Positions 1 through 8,363 of a stretch of 64,000 bases of DNA are shown here, piece after piece. The stretch is from Mumia xiangluensis (GTDB taxonomy: Bacteria; Actinomycetota; Actinomycetes; Propionibacteriales; Nocardioidaceae). Numbering within the stretch: position 1 is the stretch's first letter; each line of letters starts with the position of its first letter. Where the stretch lies: NCBI RefSeq assembly GCF_010994095.1, contig NZ_WJYO01000001.1, forward strand, positions 1,240,001-1,304,000. Direction: 5' to 3'. Position numbers and translations under genes: made by a program. The notes under the pieces are model-generated. The model was not told the origin of the DNA, ran no database searches, and was given only the letters and a program-made list of their open reading frames with translations.

Positions 1-1
1 G

Positions 2-199
2 TCCGTGTACGTCCAGGCGGGCCTGCTCGATCCCGACGACTCGGTCACCGGCGGCGGCGTCGAAGCCGCCATCGCAGCCGACCCCCGCCTCGAGGACCCG
101 CAACGGCGCGCCCTGCTCGAGATCTACCGCTCTTTCGTCGGTGAGGCGCCCCCGGCGCCGACCGACGCCGAACACCTAGAGAAGGAGGCTTCATCATGA
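2..199 (+). CDS. C-terminal end of a protein, probably an HTH transcriptional regulator (5' part outside the window)
   Basis: An open frame runs in from the left edge and stops at a TGA that overlaps the next start codon by 4 bp (ATGA). Only about 65 residues are visible, ending in an acidic tail after a short helix containing [11 protein letters not shown]. That helix resembles the C-terminal end of the XRE-type regulators often found just before HbhA-like genes in actinobacteria, but the DNA-binding part lies outside the window, so the family call is an inference. The overlap suggests translational coupling to the next gene. Confidence 0.5.
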
Positions 200-891
200 G
201 CATCCAGGACAGCATCACCAAGACCATCACCGGACTCCCCGCCACGGCCACGGCGCTCGTGGGCCAGGCGCAGGCCACCGCGACCGCGCTCGTCGGCCAG
301 CTCGCCGAGCTCGACCTCGACGACCTCCAGAAGAAGGTCGAGGCCGACGCGAAGGCGCTCCCCGGCCAGGCCACCGCGCTGTACGCCGATGTCGTCAATC
401 GCGTGAAGGGCATCGACGTCGACGACCTCTTCGACGGCCTCGAGGAGAAGATCGAGGGCAAGCTCGAGGACATCGCCGAGGACGTCAAGGAGCTCGTCGT
501 CATGCTGGCCGCGGTCGCGCGGAACGCCGCGACCGATGTGGCGGCGTCGTCGCCCCTGGCGAAGAAGGCCCCGGCCAAGAAGGCGCCGGTGAAGAAGGCG
601 TCTGCCGACGCTGCGCCGACCGCTCCGACCGCTCCGACCGCTCCGGCGGCCAAGAAGGCCCCGGCGAAGAAGGCCCCGGCCAAGAAGACCACCGCCAAGA
701 AGGCTGCGCCGGCCGCGAAGAAGGCCCCGGTCAAGAAGACGACCGCCAAGAAGGCTGCGCCTGCTGCTCCGGCGGCGAAGAAGGCGACCGCCAAGAAGGC
801 TGCTCCGGCAGCGAAGAAGGCCCCGGCCAAGAAGGCGGCGACCGAGACGGCTCCCGTCGATAAGCCTGCGCCGTCCTCCGACGCCAGCTGA
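196..891 (+). CDS. HbhA-like / histone-like Lys-Ala-Pro-rich protein
   Basis: This 231-residue protein has two parts. Residues 1 to about 115 are predicted to be almost wholly helical and amphipathic (repeated acidic/Leu patterns such as [20 protein letters not shown]), as in heparin-binding hemagglutinin HbhA. Residues 118-231 consist of repeated [10 protein letters not shown] units, like the C-terminal tails of HbhA and of the mycobacterial histone-like proteins. Such tails bind polyanions: DNA, heparan sulfate or cell-wall polymers. The start is the ATG overlapping the upstream stop, with GAAGGAGG just upstream as ribosome binding site. The tail is low complexity and easily changes length by slippage. 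Whether it works on the nucleoid or at the envelope cannot be told from sequence; no signal peptide is seen. Confidence 0.75.
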
Positions 892-953
892 CTCCCGCGG
901 GCTCGGTCGACGAGCATGCATCGACGAGCACCGTCAGGACCTGTCTCTCGGGA

Positions 954-959
954 TAGGCT
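954..959 (+). promoter_or_regulatory. -10 hexamer TAGGCT of a leaderless promoter
   Basis: TAGGCT lies 6 nt before the GTG at 966, so transcription would begin at or next to the start codon. There is no Shine-Dalgarno sequence. This supports the GTG as the true start of the DUF2516 gene. Confidence 0.6.
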
Positions 960-965
960 CTGACG

Positions 966-1253
966 GTGTTCGTTCTCTTTACCGTGCAGTCGCTCGTCGA
1001 GGCACTGATCACGCTGCTGATGGTGGGCGCGAAGGCGTTCGCGATGATCGACGCCGTCTCGCGCACCCCGCAGGCCTTCGTGGCCGCCGACAAGCAGACG
1101 AAGCCGTTCTGGCTCATCGTGCTCGGGCTGTCCCTGGTGGCGAACCTTCTCATCTGGTACCCGCTCAGCATCCTCAACCTCGCAGGCATCGTCGCGGCGC
1201 TCGTCTACCTCGCGGACGCGCGGCCGGCGCTGCAGCAGGTCAGCGGGCGGTGA
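966..1253 (+). CDS. DUF2516 family small membrane protein
   Basis: This 95-residue protein has two or three hydrophobic segments (about residues 2-25, 45-65 and 67-82) and ends LADARPALQQVSGR. The sequence and length fit the DUF2516 family, an actinobacterial inner-membrane family of unknown function. The start is a GTG placed 6 nt after a TAGGCT hexamer and lacks a ribosome binding site. Its stop overlaps the start of the next membrane-protein gene by 4 bp (GTGA), so the two form a coupled pair. No function can be stated beyond membrane location. Confidence 0.8.
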   Translation: MFVLFTVQSLVEALITLLMVGAKAFAMIDAVSRTPQAFVAADKQTKPFWLIVLGLSLVANLLIWYPLSILNLAGIVAALVYLADARPALQQVSGR

Positions 1254-1609
1254 CCGCGCAGCGACCTTCGCCGGAGTCCCCGCCGCAGCACGTCGGGCCT
1301 CTCGATCTCCTCGCGTTCACCTGCGAGCTCGCCGCCCTGGTCCTGCTCGCGCTCGCCGGGTGGTCCCTGGGGGACGGCTGGTGGCGCGGGTTGGTGCTTG
1401 CTGCCGCGCTGGTCGGCGTGGCCGTCTGGTTCTGGGGTCGCTGGCTCGCCCCGACCTCGCCCCGCCGTGTCGCGATGCCGCGGCGGCTCGTGGTGAAGGC
1501 CGGCTTCTACGTGGCCGTCGCCGTCGTCGGTGCTCTCGCCGGCTACGCGGTGTGGGCGGCCGTGCTCGTCGTCGTGGCAGTGACCACGTCCGCGGTGCGC
1601 CGCGACTGA
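1250..1609 (+). CDS. YrdB-family (DUF2568) membrane protein
   Basis: This 119-residue protein has four predicted membrane segments (about residues 20-40, 42-60, 83-100 and 100-115). The motif SPRRVAMPRRLVVKAGFY before the third segment is typical of the YrdB/DUF2568 family. It starts at a GTG overlapping the stop of the DUF2516 gene (GTGA), which points to translational coupling in a two-gene operon. The family has no known biochemical role. Confidence 0.75.
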   Translation: MTAQRPSPESPPQHVGPLDLLAFTCELAALVLLALAGWSLGDGWWRGLVLAAALVGVAVWFWGRWLAPTSPRRVAMPRRLVVKAGFYVAVAVVGALAGYAVWAAVLVVVAVTTSAVRRD

Positions 1610-1674
1610 CCGCGGTCGACACGCCGTACGCAACTCGTCGAACGTCTGTTCGATCGCTGGCGTAGGGTCGGACC

Positions 1675-2304
1675 ATGTCCGTGACATTCCAGGGGTCGCT
1701 GTTCGACTCCTCCGACGAGCCCGCGCTCGGTCCGCTGGCCGGCCACGTCGTTCGCCACGAGCTGTCGGCCGGGGCCTGGATCGACGTCCGGCCGCGGTGG
1801 ATCGACGGCGCCGACGACCTCTTCGCCCACCTGCACGACACCGTCGCGTGGCGTGCGGACGAGCGCGAGATGTACGAGCGGGTGGTGGCCGTTCCGCGTC
1901 TGCTCGCGTGGTTCGGGGAGCGCGCTGCGTGGCCGCACGCGGTCCTCGACGAGGCTCGGGAGCGGCTCGGCGACCACTACGAGCCTGAGCTCGGGGAGCG
2001 GTTCGTGACGGCAGGGCTGTGCCTCTACCGCGACGGACGTGACTCGGTCGCCTGGCACGGTGACCGCATCGGGCGGGGCCGCTCCGAGAACACGATGGTG
2101 GCCATCGTGTCGCTGGGCTCGCCGCGCCGGCTCGCCCTGCGTCCGCGTGGCGGCGGGGCGTCCCTGTCGTTCACGCTCGGCTCCGGCGACCTGCTCGTGA
2201 TGGGCGGCACCTGCCAGCGCACGTGGGAGCACGCGATCCCCAAGACCGCGAAGCCCGTCGGCCCGAGGATTAGCGTGCAGCTGCGCCCTCGCGGCGTCCT
2301 GTAG
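1675..2304 (+). CDS. alkB: AlkB-type Fe(II)/2-oxoglutarate dioxygenase (alkylation repair)
   Basis: This 209-residue protein has the AlkB double-stranded beta-helix signature: H128-G-D130 in VAWHGDRIG, H186 in EHAIPK, and R198 in PRISVQLR. These are the iron ligands and the 2-oxoglutarate-binding arginine. AlkB enzymes oxidatively remove methyl groups from 1-methyladenine and 3-methylcytosine in DNA or RNA, releasing formaldehyde. The length matches bacterial AlkB homologues. A TAGGGT hexamer at 1663-1668 lies 6 nt before the ATG, so the gene is probably read from a leaderless mRNA. It is followed by the first copy of the 57-bp palindrome. Substrate preference is not deducible. Confidence 0.88.
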   Translation: MSVTFQGSLFDSSDEPALGPLAGHVVRHELSAGAWIDVRPRWIDGADDLFAHLHDTVAWRADEREMYERVVAVPRLLAWFGERAAWPHAVLDEARERLGDHYEPELGERFVTAGLCLYRDGRDSVAWHGDRIGRGRSENTMVAIVSLGSPRRLALRPRGGGASLSFTLGSGDLLVMGGTCQRTWEHAIPKTAKPVGPRISVQLRPRGVL

Positions 2305-2314
2305 GCGTCCCCGC

Positions 2315-2371
2315 GCGTTGGTGCCCTAGTGGTCACGTCAGCGTTCCGGGTGACCACGGACGGACCAACGC
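2315..2371. repeat. 57-bp palindromic element, copy 1
   Basis: The element is an imperfect inverted repeat built as 8-6-9-11-9-6-8: block GCGTTGGT, six variable bases, block GTGGTCACG, an 11-base centre, block GGTGACCAC, six variable bases, block ACCAACGC. Copies 2 (3408-3464) and 3 (3850-3906) have exactly the same length and spacing. It lies between alkB and the nuclease-fold gene. The conserved blocks with free bases between them suggest a protein-bound or structured-RNA element rather than a plain terminator. Confidence 0.85.
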
Positions 2372-2472
2372 GTACGCCCGTTGGCGTGGGGAAGGTTGTC
2401 CCCCGCCAAGGGATATCCACAAGGCCGTACGGGTGACCTCCGCGATGGTCGTCGGTCGGGTGGGATGGGCGC

Positions 2473-3408
2473 ATGCCGGCGCCGCGACCGATCCCGCAAG
2501 AACTCAGCTGCGGCCCTTTCACCGCCGCCCAGGCTGACTCGCTCGGAGTCTCCGCGACGATGCTTAGCGGCAGGCGCTTCATCCGCCTGTTCCCGAGGGT
2601 CTGGGTCACTGCCGCGCACGAGATGTCGGAGCGGGACCGGGTGAGCGCCGCCCGGCTGTCCCTGCCGGAGGGCGCGCAGCCGAGTCACAGCACGCGGTTG
2701 CGTCTCCTCGGGTACGACGACCTAGCGGAGCTGCCGTACCACTTCGTGATCGACCGCGACCAGAAGATCGTCAGCGACCACATCCGGCTCCATCGGACGA
2801 TCCTGATGCCGTCGACCGACGCAGACGGTGTGACGCCGGCAGCAGCGTTCGTCCAGAGCTGCGAGACGATGCGCCTGATCGACCTGATCAAGATCGGCGA
2901 CTGGCTCCTGCACGAGGGTCACGCCTCCCTCGACGAGATCGGGCAGATCCTCGTGGAGCAGTCCTGGCGCCCGGGTGCCTCGCAGTGCGAGATCGTCCTC
3001 CCGCTGCTCGACGCGCGCTCCCGCTCGCCGAAGGAGAGCGAGGTGCGCGCGATCCTGAGCGTCGTCGGTCTGCCGCTCCCGGACGTCAACGTCGACCTCG
3101 TGGTGAAGGGCCGGTGGCTGGGCTGCGTCGACCTGCTCTATCTCACCTGGTTGTACGTCGTCGAGTACGAGGGACGGCAGCACGCGTTCGACACCGCCCA
3201 GTTCAACGGCGACATCGGACGCTACGGCCGCTTCCGGCGCAACGACGTCACCTACCTGCAGGTGACCCAGGAGAAGCTTGCGCGCCCGCGTGCTCTGGTG
3301 CGTGAGGTGCACGCCGATCTGGTCGCGCTCGGGTACGAAGGGCCACCGCCCGTGTTCGGACGCGACTATCGCGCCTTGTTCCGCAAGATCCGCTCCCGTC
3401 GCCCGTAG
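2473..3408 (+). CDS. Putative PD-(D/E)XK nuclease-fold protein (AbiEi/DUF559-like architecture)
   Basis: This 311-residue protein resembles a common actinobacterial family with an N-terminal winged-helix-like part (about residues 10-60; FTAAQADSLGVSATML, then RLFPRVWV) and a C-terminal domain like DUF559/Vsr endonuclease folds. The likely active-site strands are VDLLYLTWLYVVEYEG (about residues 217-232), giving D...E-x-E spacing, followed by a basic helix and the LQVTQEKLARP end typical of the fold. Related proteins are annotated as type IV toxin-antitoxin AbiEi-like antitoxins or as DUF559 proteins; no partner toxin lies beside it. The ATG at 2473 is 6 nt after a weak TGGGAT hexamer. The gene is framed on both sides by copies 1 and 2 of the 57-bp palindrome, and its stop codon lies inside copy 2. 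Function is an inference. Confidence 0.65.
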   Translation: MPAPRPIPQELSCGPFTAAQADSLGVSATMLSGRRFIRLFPRVWVTAAHEMSERDRVSAARLSLPEGAQPSHSTRLRLLGYDDLAELPYHFVIDRDQKIVSDHIRLHRTILMPSTDADGVTPAAAFVQSCETMRLIDLIKIGDWLLHEGHASLDEIGQILVEQSWRPGASQCEIVLPLLDARSRSPKESEVRAILSVVGLPLPDVNVDLVVKGRWLGCVDLLYLTWLYVVEYEGRQHAFDTAQFNGDIGRYGRFRRNDVTYLQVTQEKLARPRALVREVHADLVALGYEGPPPVFGRDYRALFRKIRSRRP

Positions 3409-3464
3409 CGTCGGTGCGCCTGTGGTCACCGGCCCGCCATGGGTGACCACGCTGGGACCGACGC
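3408..3464. repeat. 57-bp palindromic element, copy 2
   Basis: It has the same 8-6-9-11-9-6-8 layout as copy 1: GCGTCGGT, six bases, GTGGTCACC, eleven bases, GGTGACCAC, six bases, ACCGACGC. The first base is the last base of the stop codon of the preceding gene. The element ends 27 bp before the DUF2200 start codon, so it could affect both the end of one transcript and the start of the next. Confidence 0.85.
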
Positions 3465-3491
3465 GTGGGCGGGTCGCTTACGCTCAGGAGC

Positions 3492-3833
3492 ATGAGCCGG
3501 ATCTTCACCACCAGCGTCGCGTCGGTCTATCCCCACTACGTCAACAAGGTGGAGCGCAAGGGCCGTACGAAGGCCGAGCTCGACCAGGTCATCGAGTGGC
3601 TGACCGGCTTCGACGACACCGCGCTGAAGGGGCACCTCGAGGCAGAGACGTCGTTCGAGGACTTCTTCGCCGACGCCCGGCTCAACCCGCACGCGTCGCT
3701 GATCAAGGGCGTGGTGTGCGGGGTGCGCGTCGAGGAGGTCGAGGACCCGCTGATGCAGAAGATCCGCTACCTGGACAAGCTCGTCGACGAGCTGGCGAAG
3801 GGGAAGGCGATGGAGAAGGTCCTGCGGGCGTAG
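3492..3833 (+). CDS. DUF2200 family protein
   Basis: This 113-residue protein matches the DUF2200 family over its whole length: it opens [28 protein letters not shown], has GFDD near residue 47 and ends [23 protein letters not shown]. The family is widespread, cytosolic and uncharacterised. The ATG at 3492 was chosen because AGGAG lies 5 nt upstream; an in-frame GTG at 3465 lacks such a site. The gene sits between copies 2 and 3 of the 57-bp palindrome. Confidence 0.85.
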
Positions 3834-3849
3834 GCACGCTCTCCAGCGC

Positions 3850-3906
3850 ACGTCGGTGCCTGAGTGGTCACCCGCGACCGGCGGGTGACCACTCAGCGAC
3901 CAACGT
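3850..3906. repeat. 57-bp palindromic element, copy 3 (best-preserved arms)
   Basis: The layout is ACGTCGGT, six bases, GTGGTCACC, eleven bases, GGTGACCAC, six bases, ACCAACGT, with spacing identical to copies 1 and 2. Counting one flanking base pair on each side, the arms are 27 nt with 24 matches around a 5-nt loop, so an RNA copy would fold into a long hairpin. It lies between the convergent DUF2200 and typA genes, where it could act as a two-way transcription terminator. Confidence 0.85.
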
Positions 3907-3917
3907 GGAGGGCGGCG

Positions 3918-5792
<1,875 letters not shown>

Positions 5793-5856
5793 GCGCGTGC
5801 GGCGGTCCTTGCGTGGGAGAGGCGCCGGACGGTACGCACGGCGCAGAGCGTCCTCC

Positions 5857-5862
5857 ATCCTA
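5857..5862 (-). promoter_or_regulatory. Probable -10 hexamer (TAGGAT) for typA
   Basis: Read on the minus strand this is TAGGAT, about 65 nt before the typA start. Unlike most promoters in the window it would give a real 5' leader rather than a leaderless transcript. No convincing -35 was identified. Confidence 0.4.
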
Positions 5863-6014
5863 CCGGTCAGGACGCGATGGGCCCGTTCGTGCGGCGCATG
5901 TGACGTGGGTCTCGCGTTCGCTGACGGCATATTGCGGTGACATCTGTCGGTGGATGGGGTCATGGTGGACGGTGGGCACCAGGGGGGTGCCGAGCAGGCA
6001 GGAAGGCTGGCCTC

Positions 6015-7568
6015 ATGGCCGACACACAGCAGACTTCTCAGCACCCGGAGTACCCGGACGAGATCGACGCCGCCGTACTCAAGATCGCCGGCGTGGTCAT
6101 CCTCGGCGTGATCATGTCGATCCTCGACATCACGGTCGTCAACGTCGCGCTCCCGACGTTCCAGGAGGAGTTCGGCTCGGCGGCGGACCCGCTCGCGTAC
6201 TCCCACGTGGCGTGGACCGTCACTGCCTACACGCTGGCACTCGCGACCGTCATCCCGTTGACCGGATGGGCAGCGGACCGCTTCGGCACCAAACGGCTCT
6301 TCATCGTGGCGATCGCCCTGTTCACCGCCGGGTCGGTGCTGTGCGCGACCGCGGAGAGCATCAACACGCTGATCGCCTACCGGGTCCTGCAGGGTCTCGG
6401 CGGCGGCATGATCATGCCGCTCGGCATGACGATCATGACCCGCGCGGCAGGCCCGAAGCGGATGGGCCGCCTGATGGCGGTGATGGGGATCCCGATGCTG
6501 CTCGGCCCGATCATGGGCCCGATCATCGGTGGCTGGCTGATCGAGGACGCCAGCTGGCACTGGATCTTCCTGATCAACCTGCCGATCGGCATCGCGACGA
6601 TCGTCTACGCGTGGCTCGCGCTCCCCGGCGACCGTCCGGAGCCTTCGGAGTCGTTCGACTTCCTCGGGATGCTGCTGCTGTCCCCGGGCCTGGCGCTGTT
6701 CCTCTTCGGTGTCTCCTCGATCCCCGAGAAGGGGACGCTCGCCGATCCGCGGGTGTGGGTCTCGATGCTCGTCGGCGGGGTGCTGATGCTCGCCTTCGTC
6801 TGGCACTCGTTCCGCCCCGAGCACCCGTTGCTCGACCTGCGACTGTTCCGCAACCGTGACATCGCCCTCGCGGTGATCATCATGTTCCTGTTCGTGTCAG
6901 CGTTCTTCGGCAGCCTGCTGCTCGTCCCGACCTACTTCCAGCAGGTCCGCGGCGAGTCGACGCTCGATGCCGGCCTCCTGATGGCAGCGCAGGGCATCGG
7001 TGCCATGGTCACGATGCCGATCGCCGGCAGGTTGGTGGACCACGTCCCGATCGGCCGCATCGTCCCGTTCGGAATTCTCGGCATCGTGGTCGGCATGCTG
7101 CCGCTGACGCAGCTCACCGCGACGACCAGCTACTGGACGATCGAGATCGCGCTGTTCGTGATGGGCCTCGGGATGGGCGCGACGATGATGCCGATGTTCA
7201 CGTCGGCGCTGCGGTCGCTGCGGCCGCACGAGATCGCGCGCGGCACCACGCTGATCAACATCAACCAGCAGATCGCGTCGTCGGTCGGCGTCGCCGTGAT
7301 GTCGGTGCTGCTGACGAACTGGCTGCCGGCGGAGAGGCTCTGGTACGCGGTGGTCGGGAGCTGGCAGCAGCGGGAGATCATCCCGCAGATCGGCGGACAG
7401 GACGTCGTGGACGGGTTGCTCGCCGATGCGGCACAGGCGTTCGCGAACACGTTCTGGGTGGCGCTCGTGCTCATGCTCCTCACGCTCATCCCGGTGGCGA
7501 TGCTGCCGCGGCGCCAGGAGGAGGTGCCCGAGGACACGGAGGTCGCAGCCCCGCCGCCCATGCACTGA
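6015..7568 (+). CDS. DHA2-family multidrug:proton antiporter (MFS, EmrB/QacA type)
   Basis: This 517-residue protein has about fourteen hydrophobic segments and the DHA2 signature LDITVVNVALP in the first helix (about residues 37-47). The motif-A-like loop GWAADRFGTKR and the motif-C-like region GPIMGPIIGGWL typical of antiporters are also present. It would export lipophilic compounds in exchange for protons across the inner membrane. The substrate cannot be read from sequence. I chose the ATG at 6015 (MADTQQTSQHP); further in-frame sequence upstream looks non-coding. AGGAAGG lies about 8 nt upstream. The C-terminus is acidic and cytoplasmic. No regulator gene is adjacent. Confidence 0.88.
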   Translation: MADTQQTSQHPEYPDEIDAAVLKIAGVVILGVIMSILDITVVNVALPTFQEEFGSAADPLAYSHVAWTVTAYTLALATVIPLTGWAADRFGTKRLFIVAIALFTAGSVLCATAESINTLIAYRVLQGLGGGMIMPLGMTIMTRAAGPKRMGRLMAVMGIPMLLGPIMGPIIGGWLIEDASWHWIFLINLPIGIATIVYAWLALPGDRPEPSESFDFLGMLLLSPGLALFLFGVSSIPEKGTLADPRVWVSMLVGGVLMLAFVWHSFRPEHPLLDLRLFRNRDIALAVIIMFLFVSAFFGSLLLVPTYFQQVRGESTLDAGLLMAAQGIGAMVTMPIAGRLVDHVPIGRIVPFGILGIVVGMLPLTQLTATTSYWTIEIALFVMGLGMGATMMPMFTSALRSLRPHEIARGTTLININQQIASSVGVAVMSVLLTNWLPAERLWYAVVGSWQQREIIPQIGGQDVVDGLLADAAQAFANTFWVALVLMLLTLIPVAMLPRRQEEVPEDTEVAAPPPMH

Positions 7569-7604
7569 GCGGCTACTCGGCCCGTGCGGGCCTCGCCGCC
7601 GGCG

Positions 7605-8363
7605 TCAGTCGCGGGCGACCTTCCACGGTGCGGCCTGCGCGATCGGCTTGACCACCATGAGGTCGATGTTGACGTGCTGCGGGCGGGTGACCATCCAGCT
7701 GATCGCGTCCGCGATGTCGTCAGCGGTGAGCGGTTCTGCCACTCCGCTGTACACGGCCTCGGCCCGCGTCTGGTCGCCACCGAACCGGACGAGCGAGAAC
7801 TCGTCGGTCTGCACCATCCCCGGTGCGATCTCGGTGACCCGGACGGGCTCGCCGTTGAGCTCGAGGCGCAGGGTCTCGGTGATCATCGCGACGCCGTGCT
7901 TGGCGGCGGTGTAGCCGGCACCACCCTCGTACGCGAGGTGACCTGCGATGGAGCCTACGTTGAGGACCGTGCCGGCCCCGCTCGCCCGCAGTGCGGGGAG
8001 GAGGGCCTTCGTGACGCGCAGGGTGCCGATGACGTTGGAGTCGTACATCTGCTGCCAGGCCGCCGGGTCGGTCTGCTCGATCGGCTCCTGACCGACGGCG
8101 CCGCCGGCGTTGTTGACGAGGACCGCGACCTCGGGACCGGCCGCGGCGGCGAGCCCGTCGACGGAGGTCTGGTCGGTCACGTCGCACACGACGGCGGTGC
8201 CGCCGATCTCCGCAGCAATGGCCTCGACGCGGTCCGCGCGGCGGGCGGCGCAGACCACGTGGAAGCCATCGGCCGCGAGGCGGCGCGCGGTGGCGGCGCC
8301 GATGCCGCTGCTGGCTCCGGTCACCACGGCCGTACGCCGGATGTTGTCAGTGGGCTCGTGCAT
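7605..8363 (-). CDS. Short-chain dehydrogenase/reductase (classical SDR)
   Basis: This 252-residue protein has the full set of classical SDR motifs: TGASSGIG for the cofactor (residues 15-22), NNAG (84-87), catalytic Ser138 in VGSIAG, and Y151-x3-K155 in YTAAKHG. The arginine-containing strand AARRADR after beta-2 suggests NADP(H) preference. It opens [14 protein letters not shown]; in-frame codons further upstream are not conserved-looking. It resembles the YdfG/serine-type 3-hydroxyacid dehydrogenases, but the substrate is not determined. It is transcribed toward the drug exporter and shares no obvious operon. Confidence 0.85.

What the first reader, a model, noticed from the sequence alone, without database searches (positions are those of the whole stretch)
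2315..3906. Three 57-bp palindromes with identical 8-6-9-11-9-6-8 architecture around two small genes
Copies at 2315-2371, 3408-3464 and 3850-3906 have exactly the same length and internal spacing. Outer blocks RYGTYGGT and inner blocks GTGGTCACS are kept in both arms, while the six bases between them and the 11-base centre vary freely. That pattern fits a protein-binding or recombination element, or a structured RNA, under selection at fixed positions, rather than a plain terminator hairpin. All copies lie within 1.6 kb and none was seen elsewhere in the 64 kb. Possible roles: a REP-like element, operators of one regulon, or ends of a small mobile unit.
Basis: seen in the sequence. Interest (0 to 1): 0.72.

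Follow-up and report, generated by a model that had tools for sequence, protein, structure and literature searches.

The report
Dispersed palindromes paired with AbiEi-like nuclease
The three palindromes belong to families of 57-bp sites scattered behind genes in two related groups of bacteria, and their layout and neighbours suggest they are the DNA targets of a nuclease whose gene lies between two of them, a kind of repeat-plus-enzyme system we could not find described.

Summary
In detail: three 57-bp sites, exact layout, none in shuffles. They are 3 of 16 copies in this Mumia genome; M. quercus has 17. The frame YGGT-N11-CAC-N13-GTG-N11-ACCR recurs in a second Nocardioidaceae genus, up to 22 per genome, with inner words that differ between lineages; shifted by one base it is near background. 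The gene between the first two sites (orf2, 2473-3408) explains the layout. Its predicted structure joins an AbiEi-like antitoxin region (residues 3-180) to a Vsr/I-Bth0305I homing-endonuclease domain (184-288). Published AbiEi proteins bind pairs of 23-bp inverted repeats, 3 or 13 bp apart; these sites are 23-11-23. Thirteen orf2 homologues in ten genomes all have site arms beside them, 8 with full sites of this frame on both sides. Best reading: two AbiEi domains grip the arms and the nuclease domains meet over the centre, fixed in length, free in sequence. Shown: family, layout, linkage, predicted folds, arm conservation. Inferred: binding, cleavage, upkeep. Against a one-enzyme-one-word model: in G124 neither orf2 found carries the word of the dispersed copies. 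Most copies follow stop codons, so a terminator role is possible. It resembles REPIN/RAYT without RAYT.

The parts
2315..2371 (.). Element E1: two 23-bp inverted arms, 11-bp centre; 10 bp after the alkB-like stop and 101 bp before orf2
3408..3464 (.). Element E2; its first base is the last base of the orf2 stop codon
3850..3906 (.). Element E3 between DUF2200 gene and convergent typA; orthologous copies in G002 and G004
2473..3408 (+). orf2: 311-aa predicted AbiEi-EDxHD (Vsr-like) nuclease, bracketed by E1 and E2
2479..3012 (+). part of orf2 for residues 3-180: AbiEi-like region, predicted to bind one 23-bp arm
3022..3336 (+). part of orf2 for residues 184-288: Vsr / I-Bth0305I-like nuclease domain; E188, D220, E231, E233, H237, D247 invariant in 13 of 13 homologues
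1675..2304 (+). alkB-like 2OG-Fe(II) oxygenase gene, left neighbour of the orf2 home locus
3492..3833 (+). DUF2200 gene between orf2 and typA (not an AbiEii toxin)
3918..5792 (-). typA/bipA-like GTPase gene, right neighbour of the home locus (name recalled from its sequence, no call names it)
   Evidence: coordinates and homologues

Best explanation
The palindromes are bipartite target sites of the protein encoded by orf2. One AbiEi domain binds each 23-bp arm (outer block YGGTG plus a lineage-specific inner word); the two inverted monomers place their EDxHD/Vsr-type nuclease domains over the 11-bp centre, which must keep its length but not its sequence, and nick or cut it. A site about 76-148 bp upstream of orf2 would also give AbiEi-style autoregulation, and one at its stop codon ends the unit. 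Breaks in solitary sites, repaired from other copies, would homogenise the family, so protein and sites drift together between lineages; occasional end-joining leaves half-sites. Shown: the site family, its fixed layout and lineage words; orf2 bracketed by site arms; predicted folds; invariant candidate active-site residues; arms conserved while centres change. Inferred: binding, cutting, repair-driven upkeep. Open: how new sites arise behind stop codons.
For: Copies and control: 16 in G000, 17 in G004, 2 in G002, reversed-pattern control 0. Frame across two genera: 140 sites in 54 genomes, 27 of 54 with a match, reversed control 3; the frame shifted by one base gives 36 sites in the 51 shared genomes, at most 3 in any of them. 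The 13 genomes with 4 or more sites hold 122, against 7 for the shifted frame (G129 22 versus 0, G130 20 versus 2, G003 15 versus 1). Linkage: six orf2 homologues found by DNA similarity to the window, without reference to sites, all have a full-length site next to them; three element pairs 1087-1099 bp apart were predicted to hold orf2 and 3 of 3 do. Folds. AbiEi binds 23-bp inverted repeats with 3- or 13-bp gaps (PMC7319586, passages and section 14); I-Bth0305I dimerises on a target of nearly 60 bp (PMC3943268, passages). Ten homologous site pairs: inner blocks 168/180 identical, outer 139/160, centre 55/110 against 0.335 for unrelated pairs. Identity of residues 1-110 tracks the inner word better than that of the nuclease domain (12 proteins r 0.58, p 1e-4, versus 0.36, p 0.06). 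Family A copy number tracks orf2 at this locus: intact in G000 (16) and G004 (17), broken in G002 (2-3), absent there in G005 and G001 (0). dN/dS 0.16-0.24 in four pairs.
Confidence: 0.6

Rival explanations
1. RNA hairpin terminators (or 3-prime stabilisers) of a shared type that spread as repeats; orf2 is a bystander.
For: 30 of 36 family A copies lie within 30 bp of a stop codon (counted); 46 of 82 elsewhere. At some orthologous 3-prime ends relatives have other strong hairpins (read). RNA folds at -29 to -54 kcal/mol, z -2.4 to -10.3 for the five strands folded, of four sites. Covariation score of the whole hairpin reached by 0 of 500 shuffles.
Against: Fixed centre length and conserved sequence are not needed for a terminator; no hairpin with T-run found at the three sites; arm position 5 is not a Watson-Crick pair in 18 of 35 copies, G-U 9, A-C 8, other 1, and on the sense strand of tandem copies G-U 14 versus A-C 9; does not explain orf2 bracketing or lineage words.
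Confidence: 0.15
2. A cut-and-paste transposon: site-orf2-site excises by cuts in both centres and inserts into other sites; solitary sites are scars or targets.
For: Bracketing of orf2; near-identical copies at different loci: G000 window 2315 and C1:879243 54/57 with 10/11 in the centre and unlike flanks; G004 C7:504524 and C1:165450 53/57. Homologues also occur at places other than the home locus (no alkB or typA beside those of G125, G129 and the paralogues).
Against: In both genera orf2 sits between alkB and typA (G000, G003, G004, G123, G124; typA side only in G127), so it is largely inherited. No target duplications seen at the six loci compared, where flanks were too diverged to align.
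Confidence: 0.15
3. Orf2 is a sequence-specific DNA-binding protein with a dead or unused nuclease: the sites are roadblocks or operators kept for the host.
For: AbiEi proteins are repressors (PMC7319586, passages); sites at gene ends could block transcription from both sides.
Against: E188, D220, E231, E233, H237 and D247 invariant in 13 of 13; few sites at divergent promoters.
Confidence: 0.1

Closest known systems
REP/REPIN repeats with RAYT (TnpA-REP) transposase
   Same: Dispersed extragenic inverted doublets with variable spacer; single gene bracketed by repeats (PMC3733652 and PMC3116915, passages)
   Different: Enzyme is AbiEi plus Vsr-like nuclease, not a Y1 transposase (PF01797 in 0 of 6 Mumia genomes); at most 22 copies per genome here against usually over 100 (abstract of PMC2817692 in the listing); double-strand bipartite layout
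Type IV AbiE toxin-antitoxin: AbiEi of S. agalactiae, Rv2827c of M. tuberculosis
   Same: AbiEi-like fold; pairs of 23-bp inverted repeats, gaps 3 and 13 bp there, 11 bp here (PMC7319586, passages and section 14)
   Different: No AbiEii toxin next to orf2 in the window; fused nuclease; sites scattered behind genes instead of in the own promoter
EDxHD homing endonuclease I-Bth0305I
   Same: Catalytic domain fold; dimer on a target of nearly 60 bp (PMC3943268, passages)
   Different: Not in an intron; targets are many dispersed palindromes that also bracket the gene; different DNA-binding part
MTES_1575-type Vsr REase domain (PMC3710099, passages)
   Same: Weak Pfam similarity (3 of 11 members, best E 0.026)
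   Different: There part of a very large multi-domain protein; no repeat partner in the two passages seen

Membership tests
REP/REPIN-RAYT | dispersed extragenic palindromic doublets | tested here: met
REP/REPIN-RAYT | REP-associated Y1 transposase in the genome | tested here: not met
   PF01797 in 0 of 6 Mumia genomes; control rings in 5 of 14; genus g20 not tested
REP/REPIN-RAYT | GTAG or CGTC tag at one end | tested here: not met
   read from the base counts: no GTAG end; CGTC at arm positions 2-5 needs C at position 5, present in 21 of 70 arms
AbiE type IV toxin-antitoxin | AbiEi antitoxin fold | tested here: met
AbiE type IV toxin-antitoxin | DUF1814 toxin gene beside it | tested here: not met
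   window only: neighbours are alkB-like and DUF2200; neighbours of the other homologues not scanned
AbiE type IV toxin-antitoxin | binds two 23-bp inverted repeats a few bp apart | not testable with these tools
   layout matches (23-11-23); binding needs an experiment
EDxHD homing endonucleases | Vsr-like catalytic domain | tested here: met
EDxHD homing endonucleases | conserved E, D, H, D residues | tested here: inconclusive
   E188, D220, H237, D247 in 13 of 13; equating them with the motif is my inference, no residue alignment to I-Bth0305I was seen
EDxHD homing endonucleases | site-specific cleavage and homing | not testable with these tools
   no biochemistry possible
Intrinsic terminators | hairpin followed by U-tract | tested here: not met
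   (window 1-8000): no terminator-like hit at the three sites
MITE / insertion sequence | target site duplication at empty-site comparison | tested here: inconclusive
   flanks too diverged to align at the sites

The most novel reading that the evidence does not exclude
A hitherto undescribed class of genome-resident system: a natural FokI-fusion-like nuclease (AbiEi DNA-reader plus homing-nuclease domain) that lives with a population of its own bipartite cut sites spread behind host genes, keeps them uniform by break and repair, and re-writes its recognition word in step with them from species to species, in place, at one inherited locus.
Probability: 0.45. Interest if true: 0.93.

Novelty: categorically new. 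Interest (0 to 1): 0.86.

Why it matters
Repeat families with a dedicated enzyme are known mainly as REP/RAYT. A second, unrelated solution built from an antitoxin DNA-reader and a homing nuclease would show how such populations arise and persist, would give a function to a group of actinobacterial proteins that Pfam does not name, and makes protein-site co-evolution directly testable, because related species carry the same gene at the same locus with different words. It also offers long-target nucleases whose specificity is written in short exchangeable words.

Tried and rejected
RAYT-driven REPs: rejected, no Y1 transposase in six Mumia genomes. Plain terminators: no U-tract and layout too strict; kept as a possible second role. 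RNA structure as main cause: sense-strand G-U versus A-C 14 to 9 is not decisive. Rfam: only a tRNA in the window. Regulon operators: positions wrong. Homologues of orf2 on plasmids, phages (tblastn, E up to 1e-5) and viral contigs (two peptide patterns): none. PDB sequence search with the profile: no match up to E 1. Pfam and NCBIfam: nothing above cut-off. Joint alignment of families A and B by MAFFT put false gaps in, so the covariance model was built from 28 family A copies alone; of the 36 loci these were left out of it: L001, L003, L031, L032, L043 and three L033 copies (371011, 371094, 372510). Most CM hits outside Mumia and g20 (genera g7, g14) look like coding chance matches (by eye). 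One search also holds chance matches: 8 of the 27 one-per-genome loci it gave have arms that do not pair (L133-L136, L138, L139, L141, L146; by eye), and its listing is cut, so the sites of G003, G136, G138, G144, G153 and G157 were not seen as rows. G118/G129 identity step at a site was not used: the right flank may just be a very conserved gene. Literature for an AbiEi-nuclease fusion with palindromes: searches listed nothing that describes it; only the listings were seen (15 of 20,017; 12 of 12; 12 of 74; 9 of 9; 8 of 39; 15 of 63), and passages or sections of the papers cited; the held library lacks most subscription journals and the I-Bth0305I paper itself.

Errors of mine: one search used N12 where N11 was meant; kept as a shifted-frame control. 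The typA query was in a wrong frame; repeated correctly. My notes say 33 of 36 near stops; the count is 30 of 36 within 30 bp. A draft of this report gave 23 of 24 spacings and eight genomes; recounted, they are 27 of 28 and ten. Sums and site readings done by eye from printed outputs: 140, 36, 122 and 7 sites, 27 of 28, 34 of 35 half-sites, the G005 sites, the G123 damaged site and the G124 sites.

Full report
OBSERVATION. Each is two 23-bp inverted arms around an 11-bp centre.

HOW MANY AND WHERE. The genome (G000) has 16 copies at up to 3 mismatches, the reversed-pattern control none. Of 118 genomes searched, own included, three matched: G000, G004 with 17 and G002 with 2; the other three of the genus (G001, G003, G005) and the 112 of other genera had none. 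With a wide range of gaps allowed between inner blocks, 27 of 28 distinct sites have 13 and one has 14 (counted). By a simple codon-usage gene caller, 30 of 36 copies (G000, G004, G002) lie within 30 bp of a stop codon: 15 convergent, 15 tandem, 2 divergent, 4 other.

WHAT IS CONSERVED. Over 35 copies the arm reads GCGTYGGTGCSTSAGTGGTCACS; the centre has no consensus. Complementarity between arms clearly beyond shuffles exists at positions 12-14 (24, 2, 3 of 2000), weakly at 24 (46 of 2000); position 5 pairs in 17 of 35. On a 28-copy alignment the whole-structure covariation score is reached by 0 of 500 shuffles. So there is a hairpin signal near the inner block, but the outer block behaves as two separate half-sites. 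Of half-sites with up to 1 mismatch in G004, 34 of 35 listed lie in full elements; G002 has one perfect half-site without partner (C1:1435252).

A SUPERFAMILY. A covariance model of family A over 341 family genomes matched 22. Besides family A it gave hits of exactly 57 bp with the same layout and other blocks: L120 and L100 in G001, L099, L101 and L104 in genus g20 (g20 is unnamed in these tools). G003 has CGGTG-N4-GTGACGGATR-N11-mirror (5 exact cores, 13 apart where 5-33 were allowed). The generic frame YGGT-N11-CAC-N13-GTG-N11-ACCR then gave 140 sites in 54 genomes (27 with a match), up to 22 per genome, reversed control 3. By mistake I had first run it with N12: 36 sites in the 51 shared genomes, at most 3 in one. 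In the 13 genomes with 4 or more sites the contrast is 122 to 7 (these were picked by the first count). Matches in genomes with one or two are partly chance: 8 of the 27 one-per-genome loci have arms that do not pair (by eye). Inner words differ between lineages: GTGGTCAC in G000/G004, GCGTCCAC in G123/G124/G126 and most of G127, GGTCCCAC/AGTCCCAC in G125, TCACGCAC/TCCCGCAC and kin in most of G129/G130, GCCGTCAC in the single fetched sites of G001/G144/G153; G127 and G129 have a second word. Of 82 such sites in fetched loci, 46 lie within 30 bp of a stop, 64 within 60 bp, 6 are divergent and 3 called inside genes.

THE GENE BETWEEN. Pairs of sites 1087-1099 bp apart in G125, G127 and G129 mirrored the window's E1-orf2-E2 (1093 bp), so I predicted an orf2 homologue inside each (note). 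All three hold one (44-50% identity). Six further homologues had come from DNA similarity to the window alone: G004 home, G003 home, and paralogues in G004, G002, G003 and G005. All six have a full site beside them: both sides in G003 home, G002, G003 paralogue and G005 (58-bp versions with a 12-base centre, read); three tandem sites upstream in G004 home; downstream only in the G004 paralogue, whose upstream region is poly-G/poly-C with Ns. G123 has a site upstream and one damaged in its centre downstream. A seventh similar stretch in G002 (L162) is a fragment and has no site within the span scanned. A 400-kb stretch of G124, placed by synteny, held two more homologues, one at the same alkB-orf2-typA place. 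By eye, the home copy is bracketed by arms with the word GTCGCCC (the upstream site in the exact 57-bp frame, the downstream one irregular), the other by arms 28 bp apart; my script, which asked for CAC, found neither. So 13 of 13 homologues in ten genomes have site arms beside them, 8 with full sites of this frame on both sides (G005 with 58 bp), but in G124 not the word of its dispersed family. Conversely, none of the loci fetched around dispersed sites of G118, G124, G126, G130, G144, G153 and G001 holds an orf2 within about 1.5 kb.

WHY THE LAYOUT FITS. AbiEi binds two 23-bp inverted repeats 3 bp apart, Rv2827c pairs of 23-bp repeats 13 bp apart (PMC7319586, passages and section 14). I-Bth0305I dimerises on nearly 60 bp (PMC3943268, passages). 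A fused protein should then want two 23-bp repeats with a spacer in which two nuclease domains meet: fixed in length, free in sequence. That is the element. In ten homologous site pairs inner blocks are 168/180 identical, outer 139/160, six-base stretches 87/120, centres 55/110 (unrelated pairs 0.335), all 57 bp. Limits: the pairs were found by fixed-length patterns, two sites are used twice, and three pairs (L014/L039, L031/L035, L163/L172) share only one flank. Identity of residues 1-110 between proteins follows similarity of words (12 proteins r 0.58, p 1e-4; 10 after dropping near-copies r 0.44, p 0.009; 9 r 0.28, p 0.10); residues 110-180 do as well (0.57, 0.44, 0.39), the nuclease domain less (0.36, 0.18, 0.02). 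At one inherited locus G000/G004 and G003 carry the same gene with different words on the flanking sites.

TRACES. In G002 most of orf2 is gone: an element arm (15 bases) runs straight into the last 40 or so codons; TGAG occurs both in such arms and at that place of the G000 gene; a second site there keeps only its outer left part. G123's downstream site lacks its centre (by eye). These fit breaks in centres with end-joining, or ordinary deletion at palindromes. Family A counts follow orf2 at this locus in the few genomes available (G000 16, G004 17; G002 2-3, remnant; G005 and G001 0, none there), though G001 has one CM hit with a GTGGTCACC block. G000 sites 2315 and C1:879243 share 54 of 57 bases with unlike flanks, so sites do get copied as units; how is open.

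VERDICT. Linkage of site family and protein family: very likely. Binding: likely. Cutting and repair-driven upkeep: plausible, untested. Possible second use as terminators, since some relatives have other hairpins at the same 3-prime ends.

Noticed in passing
G000:C1:105085, 713857, 1027963, 1076312; L095; L086: A second palindrome family GAAGCCACG-N28-CGTGGCTTC, always 28 apart where 5-33 were allowed: 4 copies in G000, 1 in G004, 1 in G005 (there at the typA 3-prime end). Its 28-bp gap equals that of the arms read beside the second G124 orf2 paralogue.
   Followed up: partly
L158 about 1230-1480: Upstream of the second G004 orf2 the assembly is poly-G/poly-C with Ns, where a palindrome would be expected.
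   Followed up: no
L170 and L209: Between G118 and G129 identity steps from about 85% left of the site to about 98% right of it; recombination or a very conserved gene.
   Followed up: partly
L033 2999-3221: Three tandem 83-bp repeats, each with one element, behind alkB in G004.
   Followed up: partly
L062, L064, L066 (orthologues of the L016 locus): Long hairpins such as GATGCGTTCCGACCA-N5-mirror at the same 3-prime end in G001 and G005, a different one in G002 (by eye).
   Followed up: no
L090: In G003 one family B site is followed by a near copy of its left flank and arm, as if units form arrays.
   Followed up: no
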